NCBI RefSeq assembly: GCF_000425705.1 | Contig: NZ_AUDY01000015.1 | Location: 1-64,000, forward strand | DNA: 64,000 nucleotides | DNA from: Halobacillus kuroshimensis DSM 18393 | GTDB lineage: Bacteria; Bacillota; Bacilli; Bacillales; Halobacillaceae | Direction: 5' to 3' | In this document: positions 5,908 to 62,434 of the stretch, piece by piece | How the letters are laid out: each line of letters begins with the position of its first letter | How positions within the stretch are numbered: the stretch's first letter is position 1 | Position numbers and translations under genes: made by a program | Notes under the pieces: model-generated | Database searches by the model: none | What the model saw: only the letters and a program-made list of their open reading frames with translations | What the model was told of the DNA's origin: nothing

Positions 5908-7749
5908 CTAGAGCTGGACGCGGTAGGTTCTGAACCAATGATCGATCTGACAAAGGTGGGCGATCAACTGTGGACCGGTCATCAACTGGCCGAACCAAGG
6001 GGTATCAATCGACTTCCCTTCGCTGTCCTTCAATTTTCTCACTTGATCACGGTCAAACAACTGAAACAGCGGAGCCCCGTCATCACTCAGAATATTATCC
6101 ATCCAGCGGCAGACGGCCCTCGTATAATCGGGATGAAAGGTCTTCGGATACGGATTCTTCTTCCGGAACAGCACCCGGTCAGGAAGGATGCCGCGCAGCG
6201 CCTGACGGAGGAGTCCTTTTTCCTGATCATTATGAAACTTCATGCTCCACGGCACATTCCACACATACTCCACCAGTCTGTGATCGCTGAAAGGAACGCG
6301 GACCTCAAGACTGGCTCCCATGCTCATCCGGTCTTTCCGCTCCAACAGGGTCTGCATAAACCAGTTCATATTTAAATACGACATCTCTCTGTGCTTCCGT
6401 GCATCCTCATTCTCACCGGTCAGGAGTGGTGTCTCTGCGATGGTTTCGTCATAACGCTTCAGCATATACCATTCAACATCGATGTCGCCTTTTAAATCAT
6501 CCCTGATCAGGCGGTTTCGTTCATTCAAGGACCGGATCCAAGGGAAACCCTTCCGCTCTTTATCTTCTTTCCTGTAAAACCAAGGATAACCACCAAAGAT
6601 TTCATCGGCACACTCCCCTGAAAGTGCAACCGTGACATGCTTTTTAATTTCCTCACAAAACCAGAGAAGAGACGAGTCCACATCCGCCATTCCGGGAAGA
6701 TCACGCAGTTCAACGGCCTTTTTCAACCGGTCCATCAAATCATCCGTAGCGGCTTCCATGATCGTATGGTCTGTCTGATGCTGCTGACTGACAAGCTGAA
6801 TGAAAGCTTCATCCCTGTCCGGCTGGAAGGCATTTTTCTTAAAAAACCGGGCCTGGTCCTTATAATCAATGGAAAATGTCTGCAGCGTCCCTCTTTGATT
6901 CTGCTTATACATGTCGGCGGCGACTGCTGTAATGGCACTGGAATCCACACCGCCCGACAAAAAGGTTCCAAGCTTCACATCTGAAACGAGCTGGCGTGTG
7001 GACGCATCCATAAATAGTTCCCGGACACGTTCCACCGTCTCATCAAATGTGTGTTCATGGGGGGCACTCTTCACATTCCAGTACCGTTTCACGGAAAGTT
7101 TCCCCTTTTCAAAAAGAGCGCAGTGCCCCGGGCGGATTTCCTGAATATCCTTGAACACGCCCTGCCCAGGGGTACGGGAAGGGCCGAGAGACAGCAGCTC
7201 ATGTACGCCGCTGCGGTCTACCACCGGCTCAACGTCAGGATGGGCAAGAATGGCTTTCATCTCTGAAGCATAGAGCAGTTTACCGCCTTGATGACTGTAA
7301 AAGAGCGGCTTCACTCCAAGACGGTCTCTGGCAAGGAACAACCGCTTTCGTTTCGTTTCCCATACGCTGAAAGCAAAAATGCCATTCAAATGATCGACAC
7401 AATCCGGTCCCCATTCTATATAACTGATGAGCAGCACCTCTGTGTCTGAATGGGAAGCGAAGCTCCATCCTTTCGATTTCAAGACCGCGCGAATATCTTC
7501 TGTATTATAAAGTTCTCCGTTATAGCATAGAACAAACTGTTCATCCCCGGCGGTCCGGACCATCGGCTGCCTGCCTCCATCAGGATCGACGACAATTAAG
7601 CGTTGATGACCGAAGGCGGCGGATTCGTGTATCCATGTTTGATAATCATCCGGACCGCGGTGTCTGAGTGTATCCGCCATACGGTCCAGTATAGAAGCTT
7701 TCCCCTCTGTCCGGGAATCACTGTCCACCCAACCGACAATTCCACACAT
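5908..7749 (-). CDS. asnO: Asparagine synthetase (glutamine-hydrolysing), AsnO type
   Basis: 613 residues, matching the roughly 614 of B. subtilis AsnO (YisO). It converts aspartate, glutamine and ATP to asparagine. The N-terminal class II glutaminase domain starts MCGIVGW, with Cys2 the nucleophile after Met removal. It contains QRLIVVDPDGGRQPM, CYNGELYN and the DTEVLL motif. The C-terminal ATP-pyrophosphatase domain carries the PP loop LSGGVDSSAITAV and the SGECADEIFGGY motif. Because yisL is the next gene, as it is near asnO in B. subtilis, the AsnO paralog is favoured over AsnB/AsnH; in B. subtilis AsnO is linked to sporulation. A ribosome-binding region (GGATGGTGAAGCAGG) precedes the ATG. 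Confidence 0.92.
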   Translation of the reverse strand: MCGIVGWVDSDSRTEGKASILDRMADTLRHRGPDDYQTWIHESAAFGHQRLIVVDPDGGRQPMVRTAGDEQFVLCYNGELYNTEDIRAVLKSKGWSFASHSDTEVLLISYIEWGPDCVDHLNGIFAFSVWETKRKRLFLARDRLGVKPLFYSHQGGKLLYASEMKAILAHPDVEPVVDRSGVHELLSLGPSRTPGQGVFKDIQEIRPGHCALFEKGKLSVKRYWNVKSAPHEHTFDETVERVRELFMDASTRQLVSDVKLGTFLSGGVDSSAITAVAADMYKQNQRGTLQTFSIDYKDQARFFKKNAFQPDRDEAFIQLVSQQHQTDHTIMEAATDDLMDRLKKAVELRDLPGMADVDSSLLWFCEEIKKHVTVALSGECADEIFGGYPWFYRKEDKERKGFPWIRSLNERNRLIRDDLKGDIDVEWYMLKRYDETIAETPLLTGENEDARKHREMSYLNMNWFMQTLLERKDRMSMGASLEVRVPFSDHRLVEYVWNVPWSMKFHNDQEKGLLRQALRGILPDRVLFRKKNPYPKTFHPDYTRAVCRWMDNILSDDGAPLFQLFDRDQVRKLKDSEGKSIDTPWFGQLMTGPQLIAHLCQIDHWFRTYRVQL

Positions 7750-7854
7750 CCTGCTTCACCATCCTTTTTCTAAACAGAAGTCTTTCGATAAAACATCCAT
7801 GATGACTCACTATATGAATCAACAGGGGCTTCTATGAAAAAAGGAACAAACCTG

Positions 7855-7883
7855 TTGACACCGGGAATGATAATCATTATCAT
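7855..7883 (+). promoter_or_regulatory. SigmaA promoter overlapped by a perfect Fur box
   Basis: TTGACA (7855-7860), a 17-base spacer and TATCAT (7878-7883) make a good plus-strand promoter. Across the spacer and -10 lies TGATAATCATTATCA (7868-7882), an exact 7-1-7 Fur palindrome. Binding of Fur with iron would block RNA polymerase. No plus-strand gene starts downstream before the terminator at 7.96-8.0 kb; the target appears to be a short RNA. Confidence 0.8.
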
Positions 7884-7889
7884 TATATA

Positions 7890-8000
7890 TGTAAACAACA
7901 TCCGTTATCCCCCAAGTAGCGGACATAAGAAACAGAATTCAAGCCCCCTTTTACCTATAAAAAACGCTGCATGCGATTCGCGCATGCAGCGTCATTTTTA
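7890..8000 (+). ncRNA. Candidate Fur-regulated small RNA (FsrA-like)
   Basis: The transcript predicted from the Fur-controlled promoter runs about 110 bases to a strong terminator hairpin. Near its 5' end TCCGTTA (7902-7908) can pair with TAGCGGA, presenting TCCCCCAAG in the loop. A second unpaired C-rich stretch (AAGCCCCCTTTTACC) precedes the terminator. C-rich single-stranded patches and Fur control are the features I recall for B. subtilis FsrA, the iron-sparing RNA that pairs with G-rich ribosome-binding sites. No convincing reading frame with a ribosome-binding site is present. The 3' end reaches the stop codon of yisL on the other strand. Identity with FsrA is inference. Confidence 0.6.
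7959..7999. terminator. Bidirectional terminator between sRNA and yisL
   Basis: ACGCTGCATGCG (7964-7975) and CGCATGCAGCGT (7981-7992) form a perfect 12-bp stem. A TTTTT run follows on the plus strand and a TTTTTT run on the minus strand, so it can end both yisL and the candidate small RNA. Confidence 0.88.
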
Positions 8001-8357
8001 TGCAGGTAAAATGCCCGCGCCAAGAAATCCGAAGCCGAGTACAAGAGCAATGACCGCAGCAACAAGCAGCTGGCCCCACCAGATCGCAGCCGGTTTCTTT
8101 TTCTTATATTTCACACAGACCATTTCCATTGCAGCGATTGCCCAGAGTCCTACGAGTACTTTTATGATGATCATAGCTCCGTACACGGAGTAGCTGGCAA
8201 ACAATGAACCGCCGGAGTACAAGATCAACAGATAGAAAACCCGCAGAATCATATGCGAAATCTTCGCTGCTTTTTCTCTTCCTCCCCGTGCAAAAGTCGT
8301 CACAAGGGCGACTAGCACAAAAGCGATTACCCAGGAAGTAATATGTAAGTGCGCCAT
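7998..8357 (-). CDS. yisL: YisL family membrane protein (DUF1516, UPF0344)
   Basis: 119 residues with four hydrophobic helices: HITSWVIAFVLVALVTTFA, ILRVFYLLILYSGGSLFA, AMIIIKVLVGLWAIAAMEMV and GQLLVAAVIALVLGFGFLG. The starting MAHLHITSW pattern, the short conserved IK and the KKKKPAA loop before the last helix are those I recall of the UPF0344 family. It is a small integral membrane protein of unknown function. A strong GGAGGAGAAACC ribosome-binding site precedes the ATG. It is monocistronic and convergent with the candidate small RNA, and its neighbourhood with asnO is conserved in B. subtilis. Confidence 0.85.
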   Translation of the reverse strand: MAHLHITSWVIAFVLVALVTTFARGGREKAAKISHMILRVFYLLILYSGGSLFASYSVYGAMIIIKVLVGLWAIAAMEMVCVKYKKKKPAAIWWGQLLVAAVIALVLGFGFLGAGILPA

Positions 8358-8475
8358 AATGGTTTCTCCTCCTTTTCCAACAATCTACCGCTATGATACC
8401 ACGACTGCCTTCCACTTTCCTATTCATAACTAGGACGGATAATTTTTTCAATAGTAAGAAAAACACCGCATAACC

Positions 8476-59533: not shown

Positions 59534-62434
59534 TTATTTTAACTGCTGAATATTTGCGTCTGTAAATACTTGCTGAAGGTCACTTCTCCAGGAGAAAAAC
59601 AGCACCTGGTGACGGGTGGATACGCCCTGTAGAATCGTAGTCATTTTCTGCAGCCGGCGTTCATCAAAATGCACAAACGCATCATCCATAAAAAAGGGAA
59701 GCGGCCTTTGGCCGGCCATCGTTTCACCCAGGGCCAGACGCAGCGATATGTACAACTGATCGCGCGTCCCCTTCGATAATTCTCCGGGGGCAAAAAGCAT
59801 CCCTTCTGAATCGAGCACGGTGATTCCCCGTCCAGGATCATCAGCAGCTATGCTTTCATAGCGGCGGTCCGTCAATGTCCGGAAATAGTCCTCAGCCGCT
59901 GCCAGTACAGCAGGAAGATAGGTCGATTGGTAGGACTGTTTGGTTTCCTTTAAAGCCTGCAGGGCAGCCTGATAACCGGCCCACTCCTTTGCCATCTCCT
60001 TCAGTTTCTCTTTCTCGGCCTGATAGTGGTGGGTCAGAGCTGAACGCTCATCAGAATTCTCCATCTGATCCAGCCGGCTGTGGATATCCGCAAGATGCTG
60101 CCGGGCTTTGGACTGTTGCGTTTCCAGATGCTCGATATCCCGTTTAATCTCTCGGATATCTGTGAGCAGCCGGCTTTCCTCCGGTACTTGATTCCATACA
60201 TCCGCATGCGCCTGATCCTCTTCGGACAACAATCCATCGATTTGAAACTGATACCCAGCGACGTCCTCTTGGAGTTTCCTTACGGTTTCTGCCTCTTCCG
60301 CTCTCTTATAAAAGTCTTGCTCGCTCTCGACCCCGCACTCGCCAAAAAGCTGATGGCATTCTTCAAGATAACCTTGCAGCTGATACGTGATTTTCTTAAG
60401 ACGGCGTTCCAACGCTTCCAGGGCTTCTTTTTGTTGATGGACATCCCTTTCCAAATGCTCCTGCTGTTTGATCCATCCGCTCAATTCGTTCCAGCCTGTA
60501 CGGACAGTATGATCTAATATTTCCCAATCTAAACGTCTATGAAACGTTTTCAAATCCTCAGTCATTCCGTCCTGTTTCCTTTCCAGTTCCTCTATCCGCT
60601 TCACTGCCTGAAGATATTCCACTCGCTTTTCACGAAGCTGAACGACTTTATGAAATAACTTCTCCCAGTGTTTCACATCAAGTCCGGTTAGAAACGGATA
60701 AAGGCTTCGCTGCTCTGTCACTTGAGCTTCCAGGCGGCGCCGGCGTTGCGCTGCGAGACTCTCTTTTTCCTGAAGGCGGATGTCTTCATGATTCAGCTGC
60801 TTCCACTGATCATGAACATGCTTCCATTCCGTTCTCTGTGTTTCATATTCCCTCAGCTTCTCCCGCGCTCTTTCCACATCTTTTTCTCTGCTATCTGAGA
60901 TTTGAGGCTGGACATTTTGTGGAAGGCGGGAAGCATAGAAACTGAGACCGATGGATAACATCACTCCAAGCAGCAGCCATACAACACTTCCGCCTCCTAT
61001 AAAGACCGCTGCCCCGCCTAATAGGACAGCGACGGCTCCAACAAAAAGAGCAGCCCTGTTTGGACGGACCCTGCCGGCTTTTCCACTGTTCCTTGTGGCT
61101 CGGTTGGCCGCAGCCGTTTCTGAAGCTTCCTGAATCTTGTATTGAAGAGCAGCCGCTTCGTCTTCACCAATCATCTCTTCTTCCAATTCAGCTTTCTTCG
61201 TCTCTACATACTGAAACTCCCGCTCCAGATCCATACTTTGATCATGAATATAGGCCCTTTCCTGAACCAATGTCTGTTCTTCGTTTTTCAACTCCCTCCA
61301 CGTTTCTTCTATATAAAAGGGAAATGTGTAATCATCAAGATCGTCAACGGTCAACGGAATATCCAGCGACTGGACTTCCTTGGAGAGCTCTTCCTGCCTG
61401 TGCTCTGTTTCCTTATGCAGTCGTTCTTTCTCATAACCGAGCTTTTCTGATTCCGGGCGTCGCTTCAAAAGCAATGCCGCTTCCTCGAGTCGTTGAGGCT
61501 GGTAAGCGGCCGCCAAGGCCTTCAGCTTTTCCTTTCCGGCTTCGACATCCGAAGTGAGGAGCTTCTTTTCTGATTGCAGGGGAAGAATTTTTTCCTTGAG
61601 CTGCCTGTATCTTTCCATTCCCCCGTCAGGAAAAACAATGAACTCCCGGCGTTGGAGTTCTTCCAGTCCTTGATGATAGTTCACAAGTGCCGGCCTGGCC
61701 TTCAATAATTGTTCCGTCCGGTAGAGGGCATTCGTTTTCTCCCTCCAGGCCATTCCAGAGGCTTCGATTTCCTCGATCGCCTGCTGCTTTTCCTCAAGCA
61801 GGTGAAGATAGGCCTGCTCCTCTTTTTCAAGCGATCGTGTCTTCTTATAAAGGTCTTCCACTTTATGAAGCTGCTCATTGATCACGGGTTTTCTGCCCTG
61901 GGGTTTGAACCGCTCCTCTACTTTCTTTTCCAGCCATCTTTCTGTGCGGCTGATCCGATCCGATCCGGTGAGACCGATATCCAGCAAGGTTTCTCCAAGA
62001 CTTTCCGCAGACAGTGTTTCCAAATGGCGGAGGTCGTCGGCATTGAAACTGAAAATCGCTTCAAAGCTCTCCCGGTCCAGACCATTCAACTGGTCCCTCA
62101 GCCATTCTTCCCCATGCTCTACTCCAAGAGAGGTGCGGCAGATCGCCTGTCCTTTATATCGGTCATGAAATCGTTCGACTGTCACGACTTCAGCTTCTGC
62201 CGTCTCTACAGTGATGGTACCTCCAAGTCCTCCGCCTTGTTTAGGCATATAAGCTTCCCTCTGTTTAGGCGGCAGACCGAAAAACATGTATAAAAAGAAA
62301 TGATAAAGGGTGGATTTCCCCGCTTCATTTTTTCCTGTAATGATGTTAGGCCGGTCCTCAGCAAAGGATAGGGAGAACCCGCTCCATTTTCCAAAGCCAT
62401 GAATATATAGATTATGTATGATCAAAGCCGTCAT
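59534..62434 (-). CDS. yhaN: YhaN, SMC/Rad50-like AAA ATPase
   Basis: 966 residues (B. subtilis about 963). An ABC-type ATPase split by long coiled coils: Walker A ITGKNEAGKSTLYHF at the N-terminus, and the signature LSKGTRDQLYISLRLAL and Walker B LPFFMDDAFVHFDERR at the C-terminus. Two adjacent hydrophobic helices in the middle (AALFVGAVAVLLGGAAVFIGGGSVVWLLLGVMLSIGLSFYA) make it a membrane-anchored Rad50/SbcC relative. It follows yhaO with a 23-base overlap. B. subtilis yhaONM is SOS-regulated as I recall, and a LexA box precedes yhaO here. Confidence 0.92.
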   Translation of the reverse strand: MTALIIHNLYIHGFGKWSGFSLSFAEDRPNIITGKNEAGKSTLYHFFLYMFFGLPPKQREAYMPKQGGGLGGTITVETAEAEVVTVERFHDRYKGQAICRTSLGVEHGEEWLRDQLNGLDRESFEAIFSFNADDLRHLETLSAESLGETLLDIGLTGSDRISRTERWLEKKVEERFKPQGRKPVINEQLHKVEDLYKKTRSLEKEEQAYLHLLEEKQQAIEEIEASGMAWREKTNALYRTEQLLKARPALVNYHQGLEELQRREFIVFPDGGMERYRQLKEKILPLQSEKKLLTSDVEAGKEKLKALAAAYQPQRLEEAALLLKRRPESEKLGYEKERLHKETEHRQEELSKEVQSLDIPLTVDDLDDYTFPFYIEETWRELKNEEQTLVQERAYIHDQSMDLEREFQYVETKKAELEEEMIGEDEAAALQYKIQEASETAAANRATRNSGKAGRVRPNRAALFVGAVAVLLGGAAVFIGGGSVVWLLLGVMLSIGLSFYASRLPQNVQPQISDSREKDVERAREKLREYETQRTEWKHVHDQWKQLNHEDIRLQEKESLAAQRRRRLEAQVTEQRSLYPFLTGLDVKHWEKLFHKVVQLREKRVEYLQAVKRIEELERKQDGMTEDLKTFHRRLDWEILDHTVRTGWNELSGWIKQQEHLERDVHQQKEALEALERRLKKITYQLQGYLEECHQLFGECGVESEQDFYKRAEEAETVRKLQEDVAGYQFQIDGLLSEEDQAHADVWNQVPEESRLLTDIREIKRDIEHLETQQSKARQHLADIHSRLDQMENSDERSALTHHYQAEKEKLKEMAKEWAGYQAALQALKETKQSYQSTYLPAVLAAAEDYFRTLTDRRYESIAADDPGRGITVLDSEGMLFAPGELSKGTRDQLYISLRLALGETMAGQRPLPFFMDDAFVHFDERRLQKMTTILQGVSTRHQVLFFSWRSDLQQVFTDANIQQLK

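What the first reader, a model, noticed from the sequence alone, without database searches (positions are those of the whole stretch)
7855..8000. Fur-box promoter driving a C-rich small RNA (FsrA-like)
A near-consensus promoter carries an exact 15-base Fur palindrome across its spacer and -10, yet no gene follows on that strand. The roughly 110-base transcript has two C-rich unpaired patches and a strong terminator. This is the architecture I recall for the iron-sparing RNA FsrA of B. subtilis. If real, it would be the iron-response hub of this organism, and its 3' end would touch yisL on the other strand.
Basis: partly seen in the sequence, partly recalled or inferred. Interest (0 to 1): 0.75.

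Follow-up and report, generated by a model that had tools for sequence, protein, structure and literature searches.

The report
Iron-switched small RNA in Halobacillus
Between two ordinary genes of a salt-loving bacterium lies an unannotated small RNA gene that the iron sensor Fur probably switches on when iron is scarce, and it looks built to silence iron-using enzymes such as aconitase and succinate dehydrogenase.

Summary
TTGACA-17-TATCAT overlaps an exact Fur box at 7868-7882; a ~110-nt non-coding transcript follows, with a CCCCC hairpin loop, an unpaired CCCCC patch and a strong terminator shared with yisL on the other strand. The host is a Halobacillus. The unit is conserved beside yisL: 18 of 22 genus genomes by BLAST; 39 of 44 family genomes match a promoter+RNA model; 20 of 22 named loci. 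An RNA-only model without the Fur box lands on the same spot in 13 genomes not used to build it; all 13 carry the Fur box. Likely function: a Fur-repressed, trans-acting iron-sparing RNA whose C-patches cover G-rich ribosome-binding sites. sdhC and aconitase carry GGGGGTAA there in 21 of 21 genomes each, against none of four control genes. Against: leuC and lutA, known FsrA targets, do not fit, and iron genes were not enriched in a second sample. It is not FsrA: 0 of 22 genus genomes score as FsrA, and locus and RNA layout differ. It works like FsrA and IsrR but is a new RNA family of a known kind. Transcription, Fur binding and repression are untested.

The parts
7855..7883 (+). sigma-A type promoter: TTGACA (7855-7860), 17 nt, TATCAT (7878-7883)
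   Evidence: TTGAC[A/T], 17-nt spacing and TATCAT in 18 of 18 genus loci
7868..7882 (.). Fur box TGATAATCATTATCA covering spacer and -10; core of a 9-1-9 inverted repeat 7866-7884
   Evidence: only match in window; TGANAATNATTATCA in 18 of 18 genus loci
7890..8000 (+). Predicted small RNA, about 110 nt (start inferred from the promoter, end from the terminator)
   Evidence: RNA-only model R1 match 7899-8000 (the window was in its training set)
7901..7923 (+). Hairpin H1, CCGUUA/UAGCGG stem with C-patch 1 (CCCCC 7909-7913) in its loop
   Evidence: 99% of cells paired in 17 sequences, C-G to U-A double change in 2
7944..7948 (+). C-patch 2 (AAGCCCCCUUUU, 7941-7952), single-stranded linker
   Evidence: a second C-run of 4 or more in 18 of 18 genus loci
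7964..7992 (.). Intrinsic terminator stem-loop, bidirectional; ends the RNA (+) and yisL (-)
   Evidence: (88.7% of cells paired; one pair changed on both sides in 10 of 17 sequences)
7998..8357 (-). yisL (DUF1516 protein), convergent neighbour; not part of the unit but its syntenic anchor
5908..7749 (-). asparagine synthase (called asnO here), divergent neighbour; its distance to the Fur box varies among relatives

Best explanation
A stand-alone gene for a Fur-repressed, trans-acting iron-sparing small RNA. With iron, Fur sits on the -10 and blocks transcription. Without iron, a ~110-nt RNA is made. Its two C-patches (H1 loop and linker) pair with G-rich ribosome-binding sites of iron-enzyme mRNAs, first of all sdhC and aconitase and probably the menaquinol:cytochrome c reductase genes, and block translation. 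Shown here: the promoter/Fur/RNA/terminator unit, its conservation and synteny, and conserved complementarity to sdhC and aconitase. Inferred: transcription, Fur binding (a Fur protein was not looked for), pairing in the cell and repression.
For: Fur box, -35, -10 and two C-runs in 18 of 18 genus loci. All 18 lie between yisL and asparagine synthase. Hairpin pairs kept through changes. The RNA-only model lands on the place of the promoter model in 13 genomes outside both training sets, all 13 with Fur box and yisL. sdhC (21 of 21) and aconitase (21 of 21) start sites carry GGGGGTAA; leuC 0 of 21, lutA 0 of 12, yisL 0 of 18, rocD 0 of 18. Median best helix with each genome's own RNA (18 genomes; 12 for lutA) is -19.6 and -18.9 against -9.4 to -11.9 kcal/mol for the four controls. 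In the own genome 6 and 8 of 287 sampled gene starts pair as well as sdhC and aconitase; letter-shuffled RNA does as well in 11 and 6 of 500. Fourth of those 287 is a cytochrome b6-type gene (qcrB by my naming) and ninth its Rieske neighbour; qcrB, sdhC and citB are named as FsrA targets in a passage of PMC8216469.
Against: leuC and lutA, also FsrA targets, have ordinary ribosome-binding sites. In a second sample of 351 gene starts the 20 best matches held 1-2 iron proteins (one already seen before) against 3 in 20 drawn at random from rank 61 down, so complementarity alone does not single out iron genes. GGGGGTAA before ATG is no more frequent in the genome than its reversed control (13 against 15 matches), and that motif was chosen after seeing the two sites. 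By full duplex energy 11 and 37 of 287 starts do as well as sdhC and aconitase. Pairs changed on both sides are few: 35 of 500 shuffles have as many. No expression data.
Confidence: 0.82

Rival explanations
1. The Fur box serves the minus strand and controls the asparagine synthase gene; the plus-strand promoter is a by-product of the palindrome.
For: A minus-strand promoter-like match TTTACA-17-TATCAT exists over the same box.
Against: Of 18 genus loci only the window has TATCAT as minus -10; 15 read TCTCA plus any base and 2 read TATCAA, while the plus TATCAT is invariant. From the gene start lies 107 to 821 nt from the Fur box, varying between genomes. RNA hairpin and terminator are conserved downstream on the plus side.
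Confidence: 0.05
2. It is a true ortholog of B. subtilis FsrA that has moved and diverged beyond sequence recognition.
For: The FsrA promoter has the same layout and the same Fur box TGATAATCATTATCA in 5 of 5 FsrA loci fetched. sdhC and citB are shared likely targets.
Against: No FsrA model match at the locus; 0 of 22 over cut-off in the genus. The FsrA locus whose flank was identified (L290) lies next to YkuI. FsrA has C-runs after a 5' hairpin and in the terminator loop. A shared promoter may be convergent under Fur.
Confidence: 0.1
3. A Fur-regulated RNA that encodes a small peptide, or a C-rich RNA of another kind (RoxS/RsaE type).
For: C-rich regions are shared with RoxS and CsfG (passage of PMC8216469).
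Against: No relevant Rfam family reached the locus in a permissive scan. Start codons inside the RNA occur only in the terminator. Conserved letters lie in stems and C-runs, with length changes in loop and linker, unlike coding sequence.
Confidence: 0.03

Closest known systems
FsrA of Bacillus subtilis (Rfam RF02273)
   Same: TTGACA-17-TATCAT promoter overlapped by the same Fur box, stand-alone RNA, several C-runs, terminator (5 loci); complementary G-rich start sites of sdhC and aconitase, qcrB likely too.
   Different: Other locus, no model match, C-runs in the loop of an internal hairpin and in the linker instead of after a 5' hairpin and in the terminator loop; leuC and lutA not predicted as targets.
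IsrR of Staphylococcus aureus
   Same: Fur-repressed, C-rich regions in hairpin loops, terminator, two Fur boxes (abstract and passages of PMC9410917); 14 of 18 Halobacillus loci also have a second Fur-like box 22 nt downstream, the window does not.
   Different: IsrR has three C-rich regions and is described as conserved among staphylococci. I did not fetch or compare the IsrR sequence; no relevant Rfam family matched.
NrrF of Neisseria / RyhB of E. coli
   Same: Fur-controlled iron-sparing RNAs; NrrF represses sdhCDAB and targets bc1 genes (start of the abstract of PMC5586341 as listed).
   Different: No sequence relation seen; RyhB's use of Hfq is stated in a passage of PMC12871923 and was not tested here.

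Membership tests
FsrA (RF02273) | Score over the Rfam covariance-model cut-off (80 bits) | tested here: not met
   No match at the locus; best in own genome 19.9 bits at another place, no Fur box seen in the 90 nt before it; 0 of 22 in genus. Positive control B. subtilis over cut-off.
FsrA (RF02273) | Fur-controlled sigma-A promoter | tested here: met
   Sequence level only; same layout as FsrA.
FsrA (RF02273) | C-rich single-stranded regions and intrinsic terminator | tested here: met
   but placed differently from FsrA.
FsrA (RF02273) | Genomic location shared with the fsrA locus | tested here: not met
   yisL/asparagine synthase in 18 of 18; fsrA beside YkuI in L290, the one of five whose flank was identified.
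FsrA (RF02273) | Targets sdhC, citB, leuCD, lutABC, qcrB | tested here: inconclusive
   sdhC and aconitase complementary in 21 of 21 each, qcrB in the own genome only; leuC (21 genomes) and lutA (12) not. gltAB, gltD, resABC not tested. Pairing not shown in cells.
FsrA (RF02273) | Fur-regulated Fbp helper proteins | tested here: inconclusive
   FbpB-type PF13040 genes in 22 of 22 genomes, but no Fur-like box (11 of 14 positions or better) beside the two own copies in the stretches read. FbpA and FbpC not tested.
IsrR | Sequence homology to staphylococcal IsrR with three C-rich regions | not tested
   IsrR sequence not fetched; two C-runs of 4 or more seen here.
Fur-repressed iron-sparing sRNA (functional class) | Induction by iron starvation and repression of iron-protein mRNAs | not testable with these tools
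   Needs expression data; only the sequence-level requirements were seen.

The most novel reading that the evidence does not exclude
Beside yisL and at other loci of the order, the same kind of unit recurs with RNA bodies that hardly resemble one another: Fur-box promoter, C-runs, terminator, no obvious gene. This suggests that FsrA and this RNA are tips of a large, fast-turning class in which only promoter, C-runs and terminator are held, so iron-sparing RNAs are far commoner in Bacillales than the Rfam FsrA family suggests.
Probability: 0.45. Interest if true: 0.65.

Novelty: new member of a known kind. Interest (0 to 1): 0.52.

Why it matters
In the class sample the Rfam FsrA model reached its cut-off in 5 of 398 genomes, one of 146 genera, so most sampled Bacilli have no FsrA that Rfam recognises. 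This RNA fills that gap for the Halobacillus family, with named, directly testable targets (sdhC, aconitase, qcrAB). Similar units in five other families of the order make the question of how such RNAs arise and turn over testable by comparison. The alignment, models and syntenic anchor allow systematic annotation.

Tried and rejected
Rejected: FsrA membership; control of asparagine synthase from the minus strand; a second copy of the RNA in the own genome. For the last, the two further weak hits of the promoter model in the own genome were read: one lies before a nitroreductase-family ORF, the other is followed by a stem-loop unlike H1. The best own FsrA-model hit shows no Fur box.

Led nowhere or counted against: leuC and lutA as targets. 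Full duplex energies, which allow long internal loops, rank sdhC and aconitase only moderately. A second sample of 351 gene starts showed no iron enrichment: the 20 best held a CCG-domain Fe-S protein (already seen) and perhaps pirin; 20 random ones held an Fe-alcohol dehydrogenase family protein, a 4Fe-4S double-cluster protein and a 4Fe-4S reductase. The iron/non-iron sorting is mine, from Pfam names. GGGGGTAA-ATG count not above its reversed control. One of the 13 non-training loci (G023) has only one C-run of 4 or more. Some weak R1 hits lie away from the locus (G018, G022, G027, G041).

Literature: searches for Halobacillus + small RNA + Fur (15 of 22 listed), Halobacillus + sRNA (11 of 11), yisL/Fur/sRNA (10 of 690; none of those ten holds yisL) and FsrA or iron-sparing RNAs (25 of 54; 35, 20 of 32; 78, 11 of 11) listed no paper whose title or abstract start speaks of this RNA. 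PMC12871923 (passages) states that FsrA homologs occur in Bacilli, Staphylococci and Listeria; the Rfam model search does not bear out such a wide FsrA. PMC8534726 was seen in passages and not used.

Rows dropped: predicted gene starts with weak Shine-Dalgarno score or near stretch ends were left out of the 287 and 351; gene prediction was a simple ORF rule. G018 is missing from the sdhC and aconitase counts (start cut off).

Full report
What is there. The plus strand carries TTGACA-17-TATCAT at 7855-7883 with an exact Fur box TGATAATCATTATCA at 7868-7882, the only match in 64 kb with up to two mismatches. No credible gene follows on that strand: start codons inside the RNA lie only in the terminator. 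The predicted transcript 7890-8000 folds far better than shuffles: hairpin H1 7901-7923 presents CCCCC in its loop, a linker presents a second CCCCC at 7944-7948, and a 12-pair terminator stem ends it. The same stem-loop is a terminator on the other strand, where yisL ends. A permissive Rfam scan of 7500-8400 found no relevant family. Neighbours: DUF1516 protein (yisL), asparagine synthase and ornithine aminotransferase (called asnO and rocD here).

Host and conservation. A YisL alignment search returned 22 named loci, 19 of them Halobacillus; same-genus genomes of the window share contig lengths with those Halobacillus records (for example G010:C36 and L094), so the host is placed in Halobacillus. 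BLAST of the 151-bp unit hits 18 of 22 genomes of the genus. In all 18 the place is flanked by yisL, rocD and asnO. In the 18 aligned loci TTGAC, the 17-nt spacing, TGANAATNATTATCA and TATCAT are invariant, and each has two C-runs of at least 4. Fourteen of 18 have a second Fur-like palindrome (10 or more of 14 positions) exactly 22 nt downstream of the first, recalling the two boxes of IsrR (passages of PMC9410917); the window species lacks it. In 17 RNAs H1 is paired in 99% of cells with a C-G to U-A double change in two sequences, and the terminator has one pair changed on both sides in 10 sequences; 35 of 500 shuffles have as many doubly changed pairs, and half of H1's pairs never vary, so covariation support is modest.

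Models. R2 (promoter, Fur box, H1, patch 2) hits 39 of 44 family genomes, all six genera. R1 (H1 to terminator, no promoter) hits 34 of 44, 30 of them at the R2 place (17 of the 30 are its training genomes). The two models share the part from H1 to patch 2, so they are not fully independent. In the other 13 genomes, which contributed to neither model, all loci carry an exact-type Fur box and yisL; 12 of 13 show two C-runs of 4 or more. In one genome each of four further genera (g2, g4, g5, g6), read over 6 kb, the unit again lies beside yisL. On the named loci R2 reaches E <= 0.001 in 20 of 22; the Pseudogracilibacillus and Sediminibacillus loci have no match. In the order, 26 of 397 genomes match, 16 of them in the family (only 9 candidates per genome were scored). 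The 10 outside were read by eye: 7 are Fur box plus C-run RNA plus terminator without an obvious gene (6 of 7 with two C-runs of 4 or more; long TTG-start ORFs without a clear ribosome site cross two of them), and 3 precede ORFs, one a FecCD iron-transport permease and two that look like lipoproteins (no Pfam match on the part held). One of the 7 (family f2) also lies beside yisL and rocD; the other six show no match to yisL, rocD or asnO in the 6 kb fetched.

Targets. sdhC and aconitase were examined because they are known FsrA targets (passages of PMC12871923 and PMC8216469). In 21 of 21 genomes with a visible start each has GAGGGGG(G)UAA as its ribosome-binding site. GGGGGUAA is the reverse complement of UUACCCCC, the H1 arm plus loop of five relatives, and pairs with UUAUCCCCC of the window RNA through one G-U; patch 2 pairs with GAGGGGGGU as well. 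With each genome's own RNA (18 genomes; 12 for lutA) the median best helix is -19.6 (sdhC) and -18.9 (aconitase), against -11.2, -11.4, -9.4 and -11.9 for leuC, lutA, yisL and rocD. In the own genome 6 and 8 of 287 sampled gene starts do as well as sdhC and aconitase. The second-best is a CcsB-type or HemX-like gene (below the family cut-off), the fourth a cytochrome b6-type gene (qcrB), the ninth its Rieske neighbour and the tenth a rhodanese/metallo-lactamase gene; the others among the first ten are not iron proteins by their families or were not named. PMC8216469 (passage) lists qcrB, sdhC and citB among FsrA targets. The name lutA rests on its CCG domain and length; leuC was checked on a part.

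Results against. leuC and lutA have plain sites. A second sample of 351 starts gave no iron enrichment among the 20 best. By unconstrained duplex energy 11 and 37 of 287 starts do as well as the two targets. GGGGGTAA-ATG is not over-represented genome-wide. The G-run sites may also be kept for other reasons, and qcr conservation in relatives was not tested.

Mechanism. DNA anatomy, conservation and complementarity are shown; transcription, Fur binding and repression are inferred.

What it is not. FsrA as defined by Rfam is over cut-off in 5 of 398 class genomes, all one genus, and in 0 of 22 here. FsrA has the same promoter and Fur box but a different RNA layout and place. So it works like FsrA and is not filed as a member. 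FbpB-type proteins are present in 22 of 22 genomes; the two own copies have no Fur-like box in the stretches read.

Noticed in passing
L140 (G000:C1:799830-803357): An FbpB-type gene (PF13040) lies within about 1.1 kb downstream of aconitase on the same strand in 21 of 22 genus genomes by the coordinates (in G001 the two are on different contigs); no Fur-like box was seen beside the own copy.
   Followed up: partly
L278, L280, L281, L282: Family genus g5 (the contig of L282 has the length of L111's, Salimicrobium halophilum) has Fur box, a GGCAC/GTGCC-type hairpin with a C-run loop and a second C-run: a different RNA body; for L278 (as L304) the place is beside yisL.
   Followed up: partly
L270, L272, L274, L275, L276, L277, L279: Fur-box plus C-run RNA plus terminator units in five other families of the order (f36, f33, f2, f31, f20), six of seven not beside yisL.
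   Followed up: partly
L326 and L328: A Fur-like box in a promoter directly before a nitroreductase-family ORF in two Halobacillus genomes (the family was checked for L326).
   Followed up: partly
L327: Fur-like box and promoter before an ORF that looks like a lipoprotein in G005 (no Pfam match on the part held).
   Followed up: no
window 59534-62434 (-): The start site of an AAA_27-domain protein pairs with CCGUUAUCCCC of the RNA over 11 bases, the strongest helix of 287 sampled starts; conservation not tested.
   Followed up: no
window 7867-7895 (-): Among 18 genus loci, in the window alone the Fur palindrome also makes a minus-strand promoter-like site with TATCAT, pointing at asparagine synthase.
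   Followed up: yes
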